A stretch of DNA of 26,812 nt. It comes from a virus. Below are positions 1 through 24,483 of the stretch, one piece after another. Below the pieces are notes generated by a model. That model was not told the DNA's origin, did no database searches, and was given only the letters and a program-made list of their open reading frames with translations. How positions within the stretch are numbered: the first letter of the stretch is position 1; each line of letters opens with the position of its first letter. The stretch spans positions 1 through 26,812 of IMG/VR virus record IMGVR_UViG_3300009104_000106; one strand, given 5' to 3'. The position numbers and the translations under genes were made by a program.

Positions 1-788
1 GGTTCGACCAGGTCCGCGGCGTTTCTCCACTGGCTCCGGCGATCAAGACATTTATCGACGTTTACGAGGGCTTCGATTTCGCCCTGGCGAAAATGAAAGT
101 TTCGCAATTGTTCGGCCTCTGCTTTTATCGTGAAGCGGCCGAACCTGTAACGCTCCCCAGCGCAACCACCGACGACGACGTCCCCCTCGACCCGGCCGGT
201 AACGGTTACTCGGTCGACTTTGGCAAGGGTCCCGTCGCCCTGGATCTCGAGCCTGGCGATCGCGCCGAGTTCCTCGAACCCAAAACACCGCCGGCGGAGT
301 TCCAGAACTTCTCGACCGTAATGATCGGCGCCGCCCTGAAAAGTCTCGATATCCCGCTGTCCATGTACGACGAGGCGCACACCAACTATAGCGGCGCACG
401 GTCCGCCCTGATCCATTACCAGAGAAGCGTCAAACAAAAGAGCGACCAGCTCCGCGATCTCCTTAACAGAATCGTCGGGTGGCGGTTGCGAATGGCAATC
501 GCTGAAGGCGAGCTAATTGTCCCGCCCGAGGCCGCGATCCGGTTCGACTGGATCCCGGCGGGCGTCCCCTGGTTCGATCCTACGAAGGAAATCGCCGGCG
601 ACGTCGCGGCAATCAATGCCGGCCTGACAACTCGCTCCCAGGTAATCAAGGAACGCCACGGCCGCGACTTCCGCGAAGTGATCGACCAGCTCAGGGCTGA
701 GCAGGAATACATTAACGACGCCGGCCTGGTCTTGAATCAGACGCAACTCGAAACAGTCGAACCAGAAACCGAGGACCCTGAAGAATGA
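1..788 (+). CDS. Phage portal protein, lambda family, C-terminal part
   Basis: The protein forms the dodecameric ring at the capsid vertex through which DNA is packaged and ejected. The open frame has codons starting at base 3 and runs in from the left edge without a start, so the N-terminus is missing. Visible residues begin with FDQVRGVSPLAPAIK, the conserved portal segment RGVSxLAPxI, well upstream of the first ATG at 93. Near the C-terminus a W-I-P...P-W-F-D-P-x-K-E segment, then a GLTTRSQVIKERHGRDF segment, matches the usual end of lambda gpB-like portals. The stop overlaps the ATG of the next gene (ATGA), indicating translational coupling. Terminase and the portal N-terminus should lie to the left. 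Confidence 0.9.
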   Translation, partial: FDQVRGVSPLAPAIKTFIDVYEGFDFALAKMKVSQLFGLCFYREAAEPVTLPSATTDDDVPLDPAGNGYSVDFGKGPVALDLEPGDRAEFLEPKTPPAEFQNFSTVMIGAALKSLDIPLSMYDEAHTNYSGARSALIHYQRSVKQKSDQLRDLLNRIVGWRLRMAIAEGELIVPPEAAIRFDWIPAGVPWFDPTKEIAGDVAAINAGLTTRSQVIKERHGRDFREVIDQLRAEQEYINDAGLVLNQTQLETVEPETEDPEE

Positions 789-9770: not shown

Positions 9771-10982
9771 ATGAAATGGACCTGTAAAACTTGCGGCCTT
9801 GTCCTCTCAATGACTCGCGACGAGTTTCCCGTCCGTTGTAGTTGCGGAACCGTCGACGACGGCGCCGACTGCGAGAGCGTCGGCCTGGGCGATACAATCG
9901 CCAAACTGACCAGACGCCTCGGGATTAAATCTTGCGGCGGCTGCAAGCAGCGCCAAGCGACCTTAAACCGCCTATTCCCCTACCGCCAGAAACTAAGCGG
10001 CAAACGCTGCGACGTCTTGAACTGTTACCCGCCGCTGGAGAATCCCGAGTGGATCAAACTCAGGGGCGACCTTTACGCCCGCGAACTGAGAAAGGCCGGC
10101 CTCGACGCTGTGAGTCAACAAGTCTCACACAAGACCGCCCAGGCTGCGAGTGTCGCGATCAACGAACACAACCCGCGCGTGTTTGTTAATCACGCGTTTT
10201 TCTTCTCCTGGGACGTGATCGGGGAGCTGGCCGGGGCGTTTCCGAAAACTAACTTTTTAACGATCAATCACTCGAGCCAGGCGGATCTCGCCCGGTCCCC
10301 TCGCTGGTTAAGCGACCAGGCTCACTTTAGCGAACTCGCCCAGCAACGCGAGAACTGTTTTCTCGGAACGGTCGACGATCGCAACCTCCTGGCCGACGTC
10401 GGCCTCTCTCGAGTTCTCTGGGTTCCAAACCTGGTTAACTGGCCGCGATGGCCGGCGACGCACCAGATCAAGACCGAGCGACCGATCGCCTCGATCGTTG
10501 GCCGGTACGATCCGAATAAAGCGATCCCGCATTCGATCCTGGCCGCCGCGATCAGTGGCCGGGTGGATCTCTTGTTCATCGTTAAGAACGCCCGCCGGGA
10601 TCAACTCACTGATTACTGTCAGTCCCTGGGCGTCGCGTTCGAGTTCGTCGACTGGTCGAGCTGGGACGATTATACGAAGACAATCGGCGACCGCGTCAGC
10701 GTTGCTCTACAACCGAGCTTCTCGGAGTCTTTCAACTACGTGAGCGTCGAACAAATGGCGATGGGCGTCCCGGTGATCGGTTCGCCGTCGGTTCGCTTTC
10801 TTCCGCGAGACTGGCAACCGAACCCCGACGATCCGCGTGATATCGCTCGCCGTCTCGACGCGGTTCTCGATGACTACGCGACGCAGAGCAAGCGAGCGGT
10901 CAAGATCGCCGCGAACGTTAAGCAAGTTAACCAGGCACAAGCCGAAACAGTTTACAAACACCTAGCCAACAAAAGGGGGTAG
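9771..10982 (+). CDS. Zinc-ribbon and GT4-type glycosyltransferase fusion
   Basis: Residues 1-70 hold Cys5-x2-Cys8, Cys23-x-Cys25, and then LGDTIAKLTRRLGIKSCGGC with Cys55-x2-Cys58 followed by KQRQATLNRLFP. The last motif is a widespread small phage domain, normally encoded as a separate protein or tail-protein end. Residues 75-400 look like a GT-B fold glycosyltransferase of the GT4 type: NHAFFFSWDVIGEL and VPNLVNWPR in the N-lobe, ASIVGRYDPNK, and the nucleotide-sugar site E319-S-F-N-Y-V-S-V-E327 followed by QMAMGVPVIGS (the EX7E motif). It would transfer a sugar from a nucleotide donor to an unknown acceptor, perhaps a virion protein or the host surface. Acceptor and donor cannot be read. 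Confidence 0.75.
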   Translation: MKWTCKTCGLVLSMTRDEFPVRCSCGTVDDGADCESVGLGDTIAKLTRRLGIKSCGGCKQRQATLNRLFPYRQKLSGKRCDVLNCYPPLENPEWIKLRGDLYARELRKAGLDAVSQQVSHKTAQAASVAINEHNPRVFVNHAFFFSWDVIGELAGAFPKTNFLTINHSSQADLARSPRWLSDQAHFSELAQQRENCFLGTVDDRNLLADVGLSRVLWVPNLVNWPRWPATHQIKTERPIASIVGRYDPNKAIPHSILAAAISGRVDLLFIVKNARRDQLTDYCQSLGVAFEFVDWSSWDDYTKTIGDRVSVALQPSFSESFNYVSVEQMAMGVPVIGSPSVRFLPRDWQPNPDDPRDIARRLDAVLDDYATQSKRAVKIAANVKQVNQAQAETVYKHLANKRG

Positions 10983-20370: not shown

Positions 20371-21044
20371 TGAACCAGCAGAAACCGAGCCATAAGCGAA
20401 CCGCCCTGGAATCGATCGAGACCTCGATCTCCGATAGTTTCGACAAGTGGGCCTCAACCGTCCCGCGAGGCTGTTCGGCCGATCGTCTGTTTCGGTTGTT
20501 CCTCTCAGCACTGAAAGCGAAACCCGCGCTCCTGGAATGCGAACGCGAGTCGATCTTCCAGGCGTTCCGCGATTGTGTTTCTAGCGGTCTCGACGTCGGG
20601 GGCGAGCTGGCTCCCGCCTACCTGGCGAGCTACTCGGGGAGAGTCAAGTTCGGGATCAGCTACCGCGGTTATCTCGAACTGGCTCACCGGGCCGGCCAGG
20701 TTAAGACGATCCGCGTCGAGGCGGTCCGCTCGAGTGACTTGTTCCAGTTTACGCCCAGCGCCGAGGACCCGATCCTCCACACCTGGAGCGACGACCAGAA
20801 CCGCGACGAGTTAAACGTGACCCACGTCTACGCTCAACTGGTTAAGAGTTGCGGCGGCGTCGAGGCCGAGGTCTGGAGTCGCTACCGGATCGACAAACAC
20901 AAGGAGCAACACGTCCGAGACTGGTCGAGCAAGTCGAGCAAGTGGTCGACCGAGTGGCTCCAGATGGCGAAGAAAACCGTGATCCTCGCCCTCTTGAGGT
21001 CTGGCCGCGTTCACCTCTCACCCGATAACCAGGGGGCGGAATGA
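20370..21044 (+). CDS. recT: RecT-family single-strand annealing protein
   Basis: I take ATG 20370 (overlapping the previous TAA) instead of the longer frame from 20205, whose extra part is shadow. The 224-residue product has RLFRLFLSALKAKPALLECE, then SIFQAFRDCVSSGLDVGGEL, APAYLASYSGRVKFGISYRG and YLELAHRAGQVKTIRVEAVR, which follow the RecT pattern (P-x-L-x-x-C...S...A...GL...Y-x-x-x-L-A-x-x-x-G). Such proteins coat and anneal single-stranded DNA in phage recombination. No partner exonuclease is visible nearby. The stop overlaps the methyltransferase start by four bases (ATGA). Confidence 0.87.
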   Translation: MNQQKPSHKRTALESIETSISDSFDKWASTVPRGCSADRLFRLFLSALKAKPALLECERESIFQAFRDCVSSGLDVGGELAPAYLASYSGRVKFGISYRGYLELAHRAGQVKTIRVEAVRSSDLFQFTPSAEDPILHTWSDDQNRDELNVTHVYAQLVKSCGGVEAEVWSRYRIDKHKEQHVRDWSSKSSKWSTEWLQMAKKTVILALLRSGRVHLSPDNQGAE

Positions 21045-22261
21045 TACGAGTAGGAGAACTCTTTGCCGGGATCGGCGGGATCGGTTTAGGTCTGGAAATG
21101 GCTGGCGGTTTTGAAGTCGCCTGGCAAGTCGAGCGGGACCCTTACGCCCAAAAAGTCCTCGCCAAACAGTGGCCGGGGTTGCCAATACATGACGATGTCA
21201 CGACCTTCCCGCCCGACGGGAGTGATAACTGGAACGTAGACATGATAACGGGGGGTTTCCCCTGCCAGGATATTTCAGTCGCAGGTAAAGGAGCTGGGTT
21301 ACATGGAGAACGCTCAGGATTGTTTTACGAAATCGTTCGCATCGCTGGTATTCTGCGACCAAGGTGGCTTTTATTGGAGAACGTCCCAGCGCTCCTTGCT
21401 GGACGAGGATTTCCAGAGGTACTCGGGTCCTTGGCCGCCAGCGGGTATTCTGAGGTCAGATGGAGAGTGTTATCGGCGGCCGAAATGGGAGCGCCGCATC
21501 TCCGAAAACGGATCTTTATATTCGCCACCCTTACCGACGCCGATGGCAAAAGCGAACCCCCTGGACCGCGGCCGCAACGCCCGACGGAAACTAAAGCGAC
21601 TGCCGACCCCGACGGCCAGCGGACGCAGCGGAAGAAACCCCAAGACGGGGAGGGGCGAGGGCCTGGAGTGGGTAGTCAAACGACTGCCAGACGAATACCC
21701 GGCGGATGGATCTGCAACACCTGCGACCTCGACGTCTTTTCGGGATGTCTCCACTACCATGGAGAGTGGCAGTGCCGAAGCTGTGGCGAGTGGACGTACC
21801 CCTTCTGGTACGAACACCGGGAGGGCTGCCAATGGTGCGGCTCCCGAGATGTGGCCGACCCCGTGTTCGAGGGATCACAAGGATACCGGCCAGAATACGA
21901 ACTGGCAGAAAATAGCGGCAAAGGGGAAACTGGCCGGCCTGGTCAAAATGTGGCCGACGCCGAGCGCGAACGAGGACGCGGCCGGCCGACCAGGCAGCAA
22001 GATGCAATTGATGCTCGGAAACCATCCCGAGGTGAGGAACGACAGCGACGGCAACCTCTTGGCTGGGACGTTGAACCCTCAGTTTGTGAGCTGGTTGATG
22101 GGGTTTCCCCTGGACTGGTGCGATATGCCGGACGAGTCGCCACCGGGATCCCGAACCGAGTAAACAAACTAAGGTGCCTGGGTAACGCTGTTGTCCCTCA
22201 GTGTGTCGAATGGCTCGCCAGGAACTGGATCGTCCCGGTAATCGAGGGAAGGGAAACATGA
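21041..22261 (+). CDS. DNA cytosine-5 methyltransferase with zinc-binding insert
   Basis: The 406-residue enzyme should transfer methyl from S-adenosylmethionine to C5 of cytosine. Motif I is LFAGIGGIGLGLEMAG (residues 7-22), motif IV GGFPCQDIS with nucleophile Cys75, motif VI LLENVPALL (Glu113), motif VIII HLRKRIFI (residues 153-160), and motifs IX-X GIPNRVNKLRCLGNAVVPQ (residues 369-387). Between VIII and IX, where the target recognition domain sits, are seven cysteines (225, 228, 236, 245, 248, 263, 266) that could hold two zinc ribbons. Recognition sequence cannot be read. No restriction partner is next to it, so it is likely a solitary phage enzyme for evasion or regulation. Residues 88-374 are overlapped by another frame. 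Confidence 0.93.
   Translation: MIRVGELFAGIGGIGLGLEMAGGFEVAWQVERDPYAQKVLAKQWPGLPIHDDVTTFPPDGSDNWNVDMITGGFPCQDISVAGKGAGLHGERSGLFYEIVRIAGILRPRWLLLENVPALLAGRGFPEVLGSLAASGYSEVRWRVLSAAEMGAPHLRKRIFIFATLTDADGKSEPPGPRPQRPTETKATADPDGQRTQRKKPQDGEGRGPGVGSQTTARRIPGGWICNTCDLDVFSGCLHYHGEWQCRSCGEWTYPFWYEHREGCQWCGSRDVADPVFEGSQGYRPEYELAENSGKGETGRPGQNVADAERERGRGRPTRQQDAIDARKPSRGEERQRRQPLGWDVEPSVCELVDGVSPGLVRYAGRVATGIPNRVNKLRCLGNAVVPQCVEWLARNWIVPVIEGRET
21303..22163 (+). CDS. Phage PTP/WLMGFP-motif protein nested inside the methyltransferase gene
   Basis: In the frame +1 to the methyltransferase, ATG 21303 opens 286 codons. AAAGGAG at 21287-21293 lies 9 nt before it, a near-ideal ribosome site. The product shows FYWRTSQRSLLDE (residues 23-35), WPPAGILRSDGECYRRPKW (44-62), four PTP repeats (78-80, 101-103, 185-187, 218-220, two of them in MWPTP), and TLNPQFVSWLMGFPLDW (256-272). 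I know this combination from phage proteins often found near cytosine methyltransferases and usually of unknown function. Finding it intact and in order makes chance implausible, so the DNA seems to encode two proteins. The role is unknown; a partner of the methyltransferase is a guess. Confidence 0.75.
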   Translation: MENAQDCFTKSFASLVFCDQGGFYWRTSQRSLLDEDFQRYSGPWPPAGILRSDGECYRRPKWERRISENGSLYSPPLPTPMAKANPLDRGRNARRKLKRLPTPTASGRSGRNPKTGRGEGLEWVVKRLPDEYPADGSATPATSTSFRDVSTTMESGSAEAVASGRTPSGTNTGRAANGAAPEMWPTPCSRDHKDTGQNTNWQKIAAKGKLAGLVKMWPTPSANEDAAGRPGSKMQLMLGNHPEVRNDSDGNLLAGTLNPQFVSWLMGFPLDWCDMPDESPPGSRTE

Positions 22262-23097
22262 AAACCGACGCACTACGTCACCCGAAACTGAGACGCCTAA
22301 AGCGAATCTTAAAGATTAAACAATTCGAGGCGATCGGGATTCTCGAGGGCTTGTTCCAGTTCGCTTGTCTTTATGCCAACGACGGAAGGGTCGGTAAATG
22401 GCCGGCCGAGGACCTAGCCGACTTTCTGGAGTGGCAACAGGACCCCGAGCAGCTGGTCGAGGCGTTACGGTCCGCCGGCTGGCTCGACGGCCAGGGGGAG
22501 CAATCCACGATCCACGACTGGGGCGATCACTGTCCCCGGTACATTACGCAACGCCTGGGACGGCGCAAAGATAACGCCACCGAGGACCAGCGAGCGCCAC
22601 TGGGCGCCGACGAGGATCAGCAGCACCTACCCAACCAAACCCAACCTAACAAACCAAACCATAAAAAGACCGTTAACAAGGCCCAGGTCGACCAGTTAAT
22701 CGACCGACTCAAAACGACCAAGGGCCTCGACCCTATCCGCAAGAGCAAGGGCCGCGTCGCCCTGATCCGCCAGGCGATCGCCCTGATCGGTCTTGACGAC
22801 ATCAACGCCGCTCTTGATCGGTTTCCCCTGGACCGGGCGAAACTACCGACCAAGCCGGCCAACTTCTCGCCCAATTGCGACTGGTTATTCCGTGACTACC
22901 ACACAAGGAAAGCAACCGGCGACCGGGTCGATATGATCCTCGAGGGAAAGTACGGGAAGGCAAAGAAACGAAAAGACCCGACGCTCTCCGAACAGATCGA
23001 GGCGCTGGAGATAGCGGTCGACGCTCAACAGACCGAAAACAACCGGCTCTGGTTGTCGAGTGTTCTCAAGTCAAAGCGCGACCAGGTCACCGCCTGA
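22258..23097 (+). CDS. Replisome-organiser-like replication protein
   Basis: ATG 22258 overlaps the methyltransferase stop and follows GGGAAGGGAAAC; the longer frame from 22201 is shadow. The 279-residue product starts MKTDALRHPKLRRLKRILKI, then QFEAIGILEGLFQFACLYAN and DGRVGKWPAEDLADFLEW, the winged-helix head found in phage replisome organisers and DnaD-like loaders. A low-complexity Gln/Asn/Pro linker (QQHLPNQTQPNKPNHKK) leads to a C-terminal helical domain with NFSPNCDWLFRDYHTRK, typical of DnaD/phage replication C-domains (...NW-L-F-x...). It should help load the host helicase at a phage origin. It ends in convergent overlap with the next minus-strand gene. Confidence 0.7.
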   Translation: MKTDALRHPKLRRLKRILKIKQFEAIGILEGLFQFACLYANDGRVGKWPAEDLADFLEWQQDPEQLVEALRSAGWLDGQGEQSTIHDWGDHCPRYITQRLGRRKDNATEDQRAPLGADEDQQHLPNQTQPNKPNHKKTVNKAQVDQLIDRLKTTKGLDPIRKSKGRVALIRQAIALIGLDDINAALDRFPLDRAKLPTKPANFSPNCDWLFRDYHTRKATGDRVDMILEGKYGKAKKRKDPTLSEQIEALEIAVDAQQTENNRLWLSSVLKSKRDQVTA

Positions 23098-24220
23098 CCC
23101 CGTCCCAACAGAGAACCGCGTCGTTGAGGCAATGAAAGCCGATGATCTTCCGACCGTGATCCCCGCCAAACAGGAAAAACGTCGGGGCCGTCGGTTTCGC
23201 TGGGTTGTAACCGTATTGCGTCGAGTACCCGGTCGCCACTTGATACGCTCCCGGTCGACACGCCCAGCAGGTTACCCCGTGACGCTCAAAACTTGAGACG
23301 CTGCACTCATGATTATGAGCAATGCAACCGACGTCGAAACCCTCGGTCCCCATATCCCACCAACGTTTAACCGCATGGGACTGATTAAAGGCCGACTGGT
23401 AACGGTATTGGTGGCGAACCGCGATCTTGTATTCCTGCCCAGGCATCTCGAGAGACAGGCGAGCTTCAGCGGGGGCGTAACAGACGCGATTCTGTTCGGC
23501 TATTTTCTGGAGCATATCAACGCCGGCAAGCTGCATTGTAAAGGCGTCGTGATTTCCCGAGATGCACAAGAGGATATTTTCCGCCCCTATCAACTGGAGC
23601 AAGTGGTCAACCAGTCGATACTCGTCACTCGGGGCCGACCTGGTTCGCACCATTGCGGATCGATGCTTAACGTGATTGTCTACCAGGTCACCGGCCAGGA
23701 TCACGCGCAGACCCTCGGTTTTTCTGATCAGCTCGGCGTCAGCTCGCAACCGGGCGAAGTCACAAAGCGAACCAGGGGCAATATGGGCGTCGCTTAGAAA
23801 CGCGATAGCGGTCACGTCGTCGTCGATCTTGATCTTGAACCGGCTCGAGGCCATTGATCGCTCGATCCTGGCGGCGCTGTCCTGTTCGGCTTTCTTCCAC
23901 TCGGCGGCGGCGTCATGTTCTACCTCTTGCGGGATCAGGCTCTCGACTCCGGCGGCCGATCCGCTGGTCCTGAGCGTCTCCAGTTCCCGGCGGAGAGACT
24001 CGGCCTCTTTCTGGAGACTTGAACTCTGGAATTCAACCGCTGGATTGCCCTTGTCCCTGGCCGGCGAACGCTTCGTTCTTTTCAGCTCTCGAAACTTACA
24101 ATCAACAGAGGATTTAGTCCGACCGAGCTGTTCGGCAATCTCGGCGGCGGTGTAGTGGTTCTCGCGTAGTTCAAAAATGCGAGCGACCTCGGCGTCGGTC
24201 CAGGGTTTCTTGAAGTTCAT
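23087..24220 (-). CDS. Calcineurin-like metallophosphoesterase with N-terminal HTH
   Basis: The start ATG at 24220 overlaps the TGA of the upstream minus gene; the open frame to 24328 is shadow. Of 377 residues, 1-50 form a Myb/HTH-like DNA-binding domain (KPWTDAEVARIFELRENHYT then AAEIAEQLGRTKSSV), 65-85 a short coiled coil, and 135-310 the phosphoesterase core: LSDAHIA (Asp144, His146), AGDLVDN (Asp178), GNHD (222-225), RHQYRYQ (His270) and AHNHE (His302, His304). These are the two-metal ligands of the family. It probably cuts nucleic acid or a phosphorylated nucleotide; the HTH points to DNA. It converges on the replication gene and overlaps its end by 11 bp. Confidence 0.82.
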   Translation of the reverse strand: MNFKKPWTDAEVARIFELRENHYTAAEIAEQLGRTKSSVDCKFRELKRTKRSPARDKGNPAVEFQSSSLQKEAESLRRELETLRTSGSAAGVESLIPQEVEHDAAAEWKKAEQDSAARIERSMASSRFKIKIDDDVTAIAFLSDAHIAPGSLCDFARLRADAELIRKTEGLRVILAGDLVDNHVKHRSAMVRTRSAPSDEYRLVDHLLQLIGAENILLCISGNHDAFTMQLAGVDMLQKIAEQNRVCYAPAEARLSLEMPGQEYKIAVRHQYRYQSAFNQSHAVKRWWDMGTEGFDVGCIAHNHECSVSSFERHGVTCWACRPGAYQVATGYSTQYGYNPAKPTAPTFFLFGGDHGRKIIGFHCLNDAVLCWDGVRR

Positions 24221-24483
24221 TGTCGGCAGTACCCCATTTTTAAAAGTAAAGCGGCCAGGCTGGCGGCGCTGTCCTCGATCGACTCCTCGGCCAGGCACCA
24301 GAACGCCGCATGTAGGAATTCGTGACAAACAACCTCGAGCGTCTCGGCCTCGCTCATGCCGGCCTTGATACGTATCTCGGGATGCTTTGAATCAGGGCGA
24401 GAGCAGTCGCCCCGGTGAGTCTTGAGATGAGCGAACCGGACGACGTAGTCGACCTCGCCGATCTTGTGGCTGATTTTCTCCAC
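24217..24483 (-). CDS. Small HExxH zinc metallopeptidase-like protein
   Basis: I choose the GTG at 24483 because AAGAGG lies 9 nt upstream on the minus strand; the open frame to 24678 is unlike protein before this. The 88-residue product reads MEKISHKIGEVDYVVRFAHL and contains VVCHEFLHAAFW with His54-Glu55-x2-His58, the zinc-peptidase motif, followed by a helix with Glu67 and Glu70 as possible third ligands. Small phage proteins of this layout are common. The role is unknown; processing of a regulator is a possibility. It forms a leftward pair with the phosphoesterase (ATGA overlap). Confidence 0.65.
   Translation of the reverse strand: MEKISHKIGEVDYVVRFAHLKTHRGDCSRPDSKHPEIRIKAGMSEAETLEVVCHEFLHAAFWCLAEESIEDSAASLAALLLKMGYCRQ

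What the first reader, a model, noticed from the sequence alone, without database searches (positions are those of the whole stretch)
21303..22163. Two real proteins encoded in different frames of the same 860 bp inside a DNA methyltransferase gene
The host frame carries the full set of C5 methyltransferase motifs on both sides of the overlap, and within it at residues 88-160 (motifs VI and VIII). The nested frame has its own AAAGGAG 9 nt before the ATG and encodes a recognised phage protein type with TSQRSL, four PTP motifs and a terminal LNP...WLMGFP. That both keep their family motifs over the same bases suggests overprinting, perhaps with one protein acting on or with the other. The methyltransferase segment under the overlap is largely its low-complexity and zinc-rich recognition region, which would tolerate this. 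This is the most likely candidate in the window for an undescribed system.
Basis: partly seen in the sequence, partly recalled or inferred. Interest (0 to 1): 0.9.

Follow-up and report, generated by a model that had tools for sequence, protein, structure and literature searches.

The report
Two-subunit phage methyltransferase, overlapping frames
A phage gene for a DNA cytosine methyltransferase encodes both parts of the enzyme in the same stretch of DNA, with the missing DNA-reading part (motif IX) written in a second reading frame; the arrangement is known from one enzyme (M.EcoHK31I), but it turns out to be common in phages and is left out of the gene annotations I looked at.

Summary
Window 21041-22261 encodes a C5 methyltransferase (alpha, 406 aa) with motifs I-VIII and X but no motif IX. 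The +1 frame at 21303-22163 (beta, 286 aa) supplies it as LNPQFVSWLMGFPLDW. In 49 phage relatives found by alpha motifs alone, the +1 frame has 1 stop against 171 expected from synonymous shuffles (+2 control: 435 against 431). Conservation of the +1 residues begins near alpha residue 96 and ends just before motif X. In relatives the TRD and motif IX stretch varies like the third codon position of beta, not alpha. One-frame relatives carry the same PTP...LNPxFxEWMMxxPxGW block in frame between motifs VIII and X. So beta is not an unrelated overprinted protein. It is most likely the target-recognition/motif IX half of the same enzyme, as in the two-polypeptide M.EcoHK31I, whose small subunit carries only motif IX. 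What is new is the breadth (phages, E. coli prophages, plasmids), the evidence that beta also carries the TRD, and a continuum of one-frame, split and nested genes. No expression or activity data exist for this gene.

The parts
21041..22261 (+). alpha: C5 cytosine methyltransferase, 406 aa, motifs I-VIII and X, no motif IX in this frame
   Evidence: ORF; PF00145 E=3.1e-46 res 3-180 and phrog_363 res 1-393; no RLQGFP-type motif in frame 0
21303..22163 (+). beta: nested +1-frame ORF, 286 aa, target-recognition region plus motif IX
   Evidence: ORF; phrog_1008 'DNA methyltransferase' E=1.9e-22; open in 31/20000 synonymous shuffles; conserved in relatives
21287..21293 (+). AAAGGAG, Shine-Dalgarno-like site 9 nt before the beta ATG; supplied by alpha codons for G-K-G-A
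   Evidence: sequence; start+SD in +1 in 63 of 94 relatives against 27 +/- 4 expected
21251..21277 (+). alpha motif IV (GGFPCQDIS, catalytic Cys)
   Evidence: alignment A2
21377..21385 (+). alpha motif VI (ENV)
   Evidence: alignment A2
21488..21511 (+). alpha motif VIII (GAPHLRKR)
   Evidence: alignment A2
21372..21473 (+). beta N-terminal conserved block (YWRTSQRSL ... GPWPPAGILRSDGECY), read over alpha motifs VI-VIII
   Evidence: +1 conservation in relatives beyond the synonymous-shuffle null, many columns with z 4-26
21534..21962 (+). beta region with four PTP modules (PTP at 21534, 21603, 21855, 21954), proposed target-recognition region
   Evidence: alignment; beta-frame codon periodicity in relatives
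22068..22124 (+). motif IX in the beta frame (TLNPQFVSWLMGFPLDWCD)
   Evidence: match to one-frame methyltransferase L232 E=6e-5; profile match E=8e-10
22166..22198 (+). alpha motif X (region CLGNAVVPQ)
   Evidence: alignment A2
21707..21850 (+). Cys-rich (zinc-ribbon-like) insertion in alpha, only in this window among the loci collected

Best explanation
The locus encodes one heteromeric C5 cytosine methyltransferase in two overlapping frames. Alpha (frame 0) forms the SAM-binding and catalytic domain (motifs I-VIII) and motif X. Beta (+1 frame, started independently at ATG 21303 behind AAAGGAG) forms the small domain: target-recognition region plus motif IX. The two chains are predicted to assemble into one enzyme that methylates phage (and host) DNA at a specific site, the same division of motifs as M.EcoHK31I. 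Shown here by computation: both frames are under protein-level constraint; beta carries motif IX; one-frame relatives carry the same block in frame between VIII and X. Inferred: independent initiation, physical assembly, requirement for both chains, methylation activity, and TRD function of the PTP modules.
For: Unbiased phage relatives found by alpha motifs only (n=49): beta core uninterrupted in 48 against 1.6 expected; 1 stop against 170.9 expected; +2 frame 435 against 431.2. Genes with RLQGFP-type motif IX in frame 0 show +1 stops at 21 against 33 expected. Column-wise +1 conservation starts near alpha residue 96 and ends before motif X, peaking at LNPxWVEWLMGFP, z up to 47. 18 independent pairs: alpha pos3/pos1 difference ratio 3.0 in the N-terminus, 1.8 over VIII, 0.56 (CI 0.42-0.74) over TRD+IX, 2.95 in motif X. 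One-frame relatives L232, L254, L276, L278, L199 carry the block in frame with motif X; split relatives match L232 in two pieces. Profile matches of beta to motif IX: E=8e-10 against one-frame enzymes, E=0.004 against RLQGFPDDW enzymes. L232 model: pLDDT 81, Z=26.1, 233 residues at 3.0 A to M.HhaI over 1..338. Start+SD in 63/94 against 27. M.EcoHK31I precedent: PMC3404938.
Against: No expression, binding or activity data. Beta folded alone gives a poor model (pLDDT 57; only the motif IX helix is confident), so the proposed fold and assembly were not shown. The profile match to conventional motif IX is weak (probability 8%). The window has few close relatives, so the constraint tests rest on relatives at 30-50% identity. 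Its nested-span shuffle P (0.0016) is modest on its own, and the Cys-rich alpha insertion suggests alpha may contribute to recognition here.
Confidence: 0.87

Rival explanations
1. Programmed frameshifting joins alpha motifs I-VIII to the +1 TRD and motif IX (and back to motif X) in a single chain, so there is no free beta.
For: One-frame and split gene forms show the same parts can work joined or apart; some relatives lack a strong SD+start (31 of 94).
Against: The +1 frame is conserved as protein well upstream of the TRD, over motifs VI-VIII (SWKTSQ, WPRSGMMRNG), which a fusion made after motif VIII would not contain. Start codons and SD sites are enriched in the +1 frame. Two shifts would be needed. 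No slippery-site search was made.
Confidence: 0.07
2. Beta is a separate overprinted protein with its own function (for example an anti-restriction or regulatory protein) that happens to lie in the methyltransferase gene.
For: Own ORF, own start and SD-like site; no Pfam family.
Against: Alpha lacks motif IX exactly where beta has it; one-frame methyltransferases contain the beta block in frame; loci without a nested frame either have motif IX in frame 0 or belong to other methyltransferase types.
Confidence: 0.04
3. The nested frame is a non-coding shadow of conserved methyltransferase residues (for example GYDAEW read +1 gives GMMRNG).
For: Several +1 motifs do coincide with conserved alpha residues, so part of the +1 conservation is expected.
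Against: The synonymous-shuffle null, which keeps the alpha protein, removes this effect, and the signal remains: 1 stop against 171 expected, z up to 47. Under motif IX several beta residues (M, G, P of WLMGFP at 95%) are more conserved than the alpha residues there (mostly about 50-60%).
Confidence: 0.01

Closest known systems
M.EcoHK31I (YGGCCR), two-polypeptide C5 methyltransferase of E. coli
   Same: Large subunit with motifs I-VIII and X, small subunit with motif IX (PMC3404938). From my own knowledge of Lee, Kam and Shaw 1995 (not readable here): the small subunit is encoded inside the large-subunit gene in another frame, and both are needed.
   Different: PMC3404938 places the predicted TRD in its large subunit; in the relatives of the window the TRD stretch is constrained in the nested frame. 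The window lies on a temperate phage; no restriction enzyme was noticed beside it, but none was searched for. Direct sequence homology to M.EcoHK31I could not be tested.
M.AquI (CYCGRG), split C5 methyltransferase
   Same: Two chains make one C5 methyltransferase. Mycobacteriophage Eaglepride, Gordonia phage McKinley, and Streptomyces and Parafrankia loci here are of this kind.
   Different: In M.AquI-type genes motifs IX and X are both on the second chain; in the window motif X is on alpha.
One-piece C5 methyltransferases such as M.HhaI and the L232-type (PTP ... LNPRFTEWMMMLPDGW ... LGNAVVP)
   Same: Same motifs in the same order; the L232 model superposes on M.HhaI, Z=26.1 over 233 residues at 3.0 A.
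   Different: One frame, one chain.
phrog_1008 ('DNA methyltransferase', PHROGs v4)
   Same: Beta matches it, E=1.9e-22.
   Different: The family is annotated as a methyltransferase, but beta carries no catalytic motif.

Membership tests
[quoted passage not shown]
M.EcoHK31I-type two-polypeptide C5 methyltransferase | motif IX lies on a second polypeptide | tested here: met
   (at the level of the encoded frame; the polypeptide itself was not observed)
M.EcoHK31I-type two-polypeptide C5 methyltransferase | second polypeptide encoded within the gene of the first, in another frame (this feature from memory) | tested here: met
M.EcoHK31I-type two-polypeptide C5 methyltransferase | both polypeptides are needed for methylation | not testable with these tools
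   needs expression and assay
M.EcoHK31I-type two-polypeptide C5 methyltransferase | sequence homology to M.EcoHK31I alpha and beta themselves | not tested
M.EcoHK31I-type two-polypeptide C5 methyltransferase | predicted TRD on the large subunit (PMC3404938) | tested here: inconclusive
   relatives show the TRD stretch constrained in the beta frame; the window alpha has its own Cys-rich insertion there
M.AquI-type split C5 methyltransferase | motifs IX and X both on the second polypeptide | tested here: not met
   motif X is in the alpha frame
C5 DNA methyltransferase superfamily (PF00145) | catalytic PCQ, ENV and GAPHxRxR motifs in Pfam-scoring context | tested here: met
   (alpha only; beta has no Pfam match)

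The most novel reading that the evidence does not exclude
A large share of phage C5 methyltransferases keep their whole target-recognition domain and motif IX in an unannotated, independently started +1-frame gene. The apparent TRD of the annotated protein is then mostly a by-product linker, and specificity is set by a hidden subunit with a variable number of PTP modules. One-frame, split and nested genes would be evolutionary states of one enzyme.
Probability: 0.6. Interest if true: 0.72.

Novelty: new member of a known kind. Interest (0 to 1): 0.57.

Why it matters
In the phage, prophage and plasmid records examined with this architecture, only the alpha frame is annotated. If both chains are needed, cloning or codon-optimising the annotated gene alone would give a dead or misassigned enzyme, and specificity would be sought in the wrong reading frame. 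It also gives a large natural set of roughly 150-300-codon same-strand overlaps in which both frames are parts of one enzyme, and one-frame, split and nested states that make the origin of such overlaps testable.

Tried and rejected
Direct pattern scan of the collection with beta alone found nothing: the window beta is too divergent, and alignments were needed. PDB sequence search with the beta profile gave no hit. AF2 of beta alone was poor, so it was not used for a fold search. An alignment mixing alpha and beta rows seemed to misplace the PTP part and was replaced by A9. The phage m5C methyltransferases ARM81ld_p31 and ARM81mr_p29 (mentioned in PMC5537653) were checked as possible tested relatives: they are conventional one-frame enzymes without a nested WLMGFP frame. 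The first stop count ran to motif X and so counted stops after the beta end; it was refined (cut the motif off and was discarded). Paper searches for a description of this arrangement in phages found none in the open library. The M.EcoHK31I and M.AquI originals are not held.

Full report
WHAT IS THERE. The window is a 26.8 kb virus contig of a tailed temperate phage: head protease, major head protein, tape measure and integrase genes were recognised, and a RecT gene ends at the alpha start. Alpha (21041-22261) is a C5 cytosine methyltransferase; a gene resembling replication initiators starts at its end. Inside alpha, the +1 frame holds a 286-codon ORF from ATG 21303 to 22163 with AAAGGAG 9 nt upstream. 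No other start codon precedes that ATG in its open frame. The span is open in 31 of 20,000 synonymous shuffles. Beta has no Pfam or NCBIfam match but matches phrog_1008, 'DNA methyltransferase', E=1.9e-22.

THE SAME FRAME IN RELATIVES. Phage records first fetched as relatives (Synechococcus S-H1, C72C1, Klebsiella VLCpiS13e, Acinetobacter ABMM1 and others) carry the same +1 block under the methyltransferase gene, annotated only as alpha. I then collected loci by alpha alignment, which does not select on the +1 frame (viral set; GTDB set), and by beta alignment (kept out of the headline stop counts). For unbiased viral genes without motif IX in frame 0 and with a motif-IX-like end in +1 (n=49), 48 have an uninterrupted beta core against 1.6 expected; stops 1 against 170.9; +2 frame 435 against 431.2. 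GTDB set (n=11): 10 uninterrupted against 1.1 expected. Two further viral loci without the regular motif are L128 (degenerate) and L143 (EEMMGFS). Genes with RLQGFP-type motif IX in frame 0 have 21 stops against 33 expected. The set is selected for similarity to the window's alpha, so it measures how tight the arrangement is in this clade, not its frequency among all phage methyltransferases.

WHERE THE SECOND FRAME IS CODING. Column by column, conservation of +1 residues above the synonymous-shuffle null is near zero up to about alpha residue 66, modest around GFPCQ, strong from residue 96 (YD..SWKTSQ, WPRSG, PTP, WPTPxARDxKG, LNPxWVEWLMGFPxGWTDL, z up to 47) and gone at motif X. In 18 independent pairs aligned as DNA, the ratio of differences at alpha position 3 to position 1 is 3.0 in the N-terminal part, 1.8 over VI-VIII, 0.56 (CI 0.42-0.74) over TRD+IX and 2.95 over motif X; 14 of 18 pairs show the reversal in TRD+IX. 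So the stretch between VIII and X varies like a protein read in the beta frame, while the ends vary like alpha. This is why I place the TRD in beta, against the statement for M.EcoHK31I that the large subunit holds it (PMC3404938). Pairs were filtered for local identity and frame, so the most variable TRD pieces are not covered, and some pair members came from the beta-selected set.

WHAT BETA IS. The beta end matches motif IX of one-frame methyltransferases: window beta against L232 (Acidimicrobiia) GTLNPQFVSWLMGFPLDWCD / GRLNPRFTEWMMMLPDGWVCD, E=6e-5. Profile against profile gives E=8e-10 for the one-frame set and, as the single best match, motif IX of RLQGFPDDW enzymes at E=0.004. Five one-frame genes (L199, L232, L254, L276, L278) have this motif IX and motif X in frame 0; L232 and L278 also show PTP modules in frame. 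In split genes (L001 Eaglepride, L002 McKinley, L207, L231) alpha stops after VIII or lacks X, and another-frame ORF carries PTP, motif IX and X; L232 matches the two ORFs of L207 and L231 separately. The L232 model (pLDDT 81) superposes on M.HhaI over 1..338 with Z=26.1, 233 residues, 3.0 A, with a confident motif IX segment; the PTP part is not modelled with confidence. A further nested form (L179, L186) ends in WLSGSERLNMMGF-like sequence, closer to the classical motif IX.

HOW IT IS PROBABLY EXPRESSED. In 94 relatives, 63 have a start codon with an SD-like match of 4 or more bases in the open +1 frame upstream of the conserved block, against 27 +/- 4 in shuffles; for ATG 32 against 11 +/- 3. 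These starts cluster at the GKGAG codons, where the window's ATG lies, and near GFPCQ. Because the conserved +1 block begins over motif VI, a fusion by frameshift after VIII cannot explain it.

COMPARISON. M.EcoHK31I has the same division of motifs (PMC3404938). That its beta lies inside the alpha gene in another frame is from memory; the original paper is not held. By architecture the window belongs with it; sequence membership was not tested. M.AquI differs in the place of motif X. E. coli prophages (L262-L265), Pseudomonas phage 5371 (L283) and a Leptospira plasmid (L284) have the same nested block. No open-library paper describing this in phages was found, but the library is incomplete.

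LIMITS. No step of activity, assembly or expression is shown. Beta alone does not fold confidently. The window's own alpha has an unusual Cys-rich insertion, so its specificity may not rest on beta alone.

Noticed in passing
window 21707-21850: Alpha carries a Cys-rich (three CxxC) zinc-ribbon-like insertion seen in no other collected relative; the beta frame over it stays open but is Ser/Thr/Gly-rich.
   Followed up: partly
L179, L186, L221 (viral contig and Pseudomonas): A second nested lineage with a different, non-PTP recognition region and a more classical motif IX (RWLSGSERLNMMGF); L221 has one stop in the nested frame.
   Followed up: partly
L263 3887-5056 (E. coli cS100a prophage): RefSeq marks this methyltransferase as two partial pseudogenes, yet frame 0 reads through without a stop.
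   Followed up: partly
L001 2423-3413 (mycobacteriophage Eaglepride) and L002 2744-3983 (Gordonia McKinley): Two adjacent 'DNA methylase' genes appear to be the two halves of one split C5 methyltransferase (I-VIII / TRD-IX-X).
   Followed up: yes
window 23087-24328 (-): Minus-strand ORF with a metallophosphoesterase match (PF00149, E=7.9e-5) opposite smaller plus-strand ORFs.
   Followed up: no
window 9771-10982: Group 1 glycosyltransferase (PF00534, E=9e-10) in a phage.
   Followed up: no
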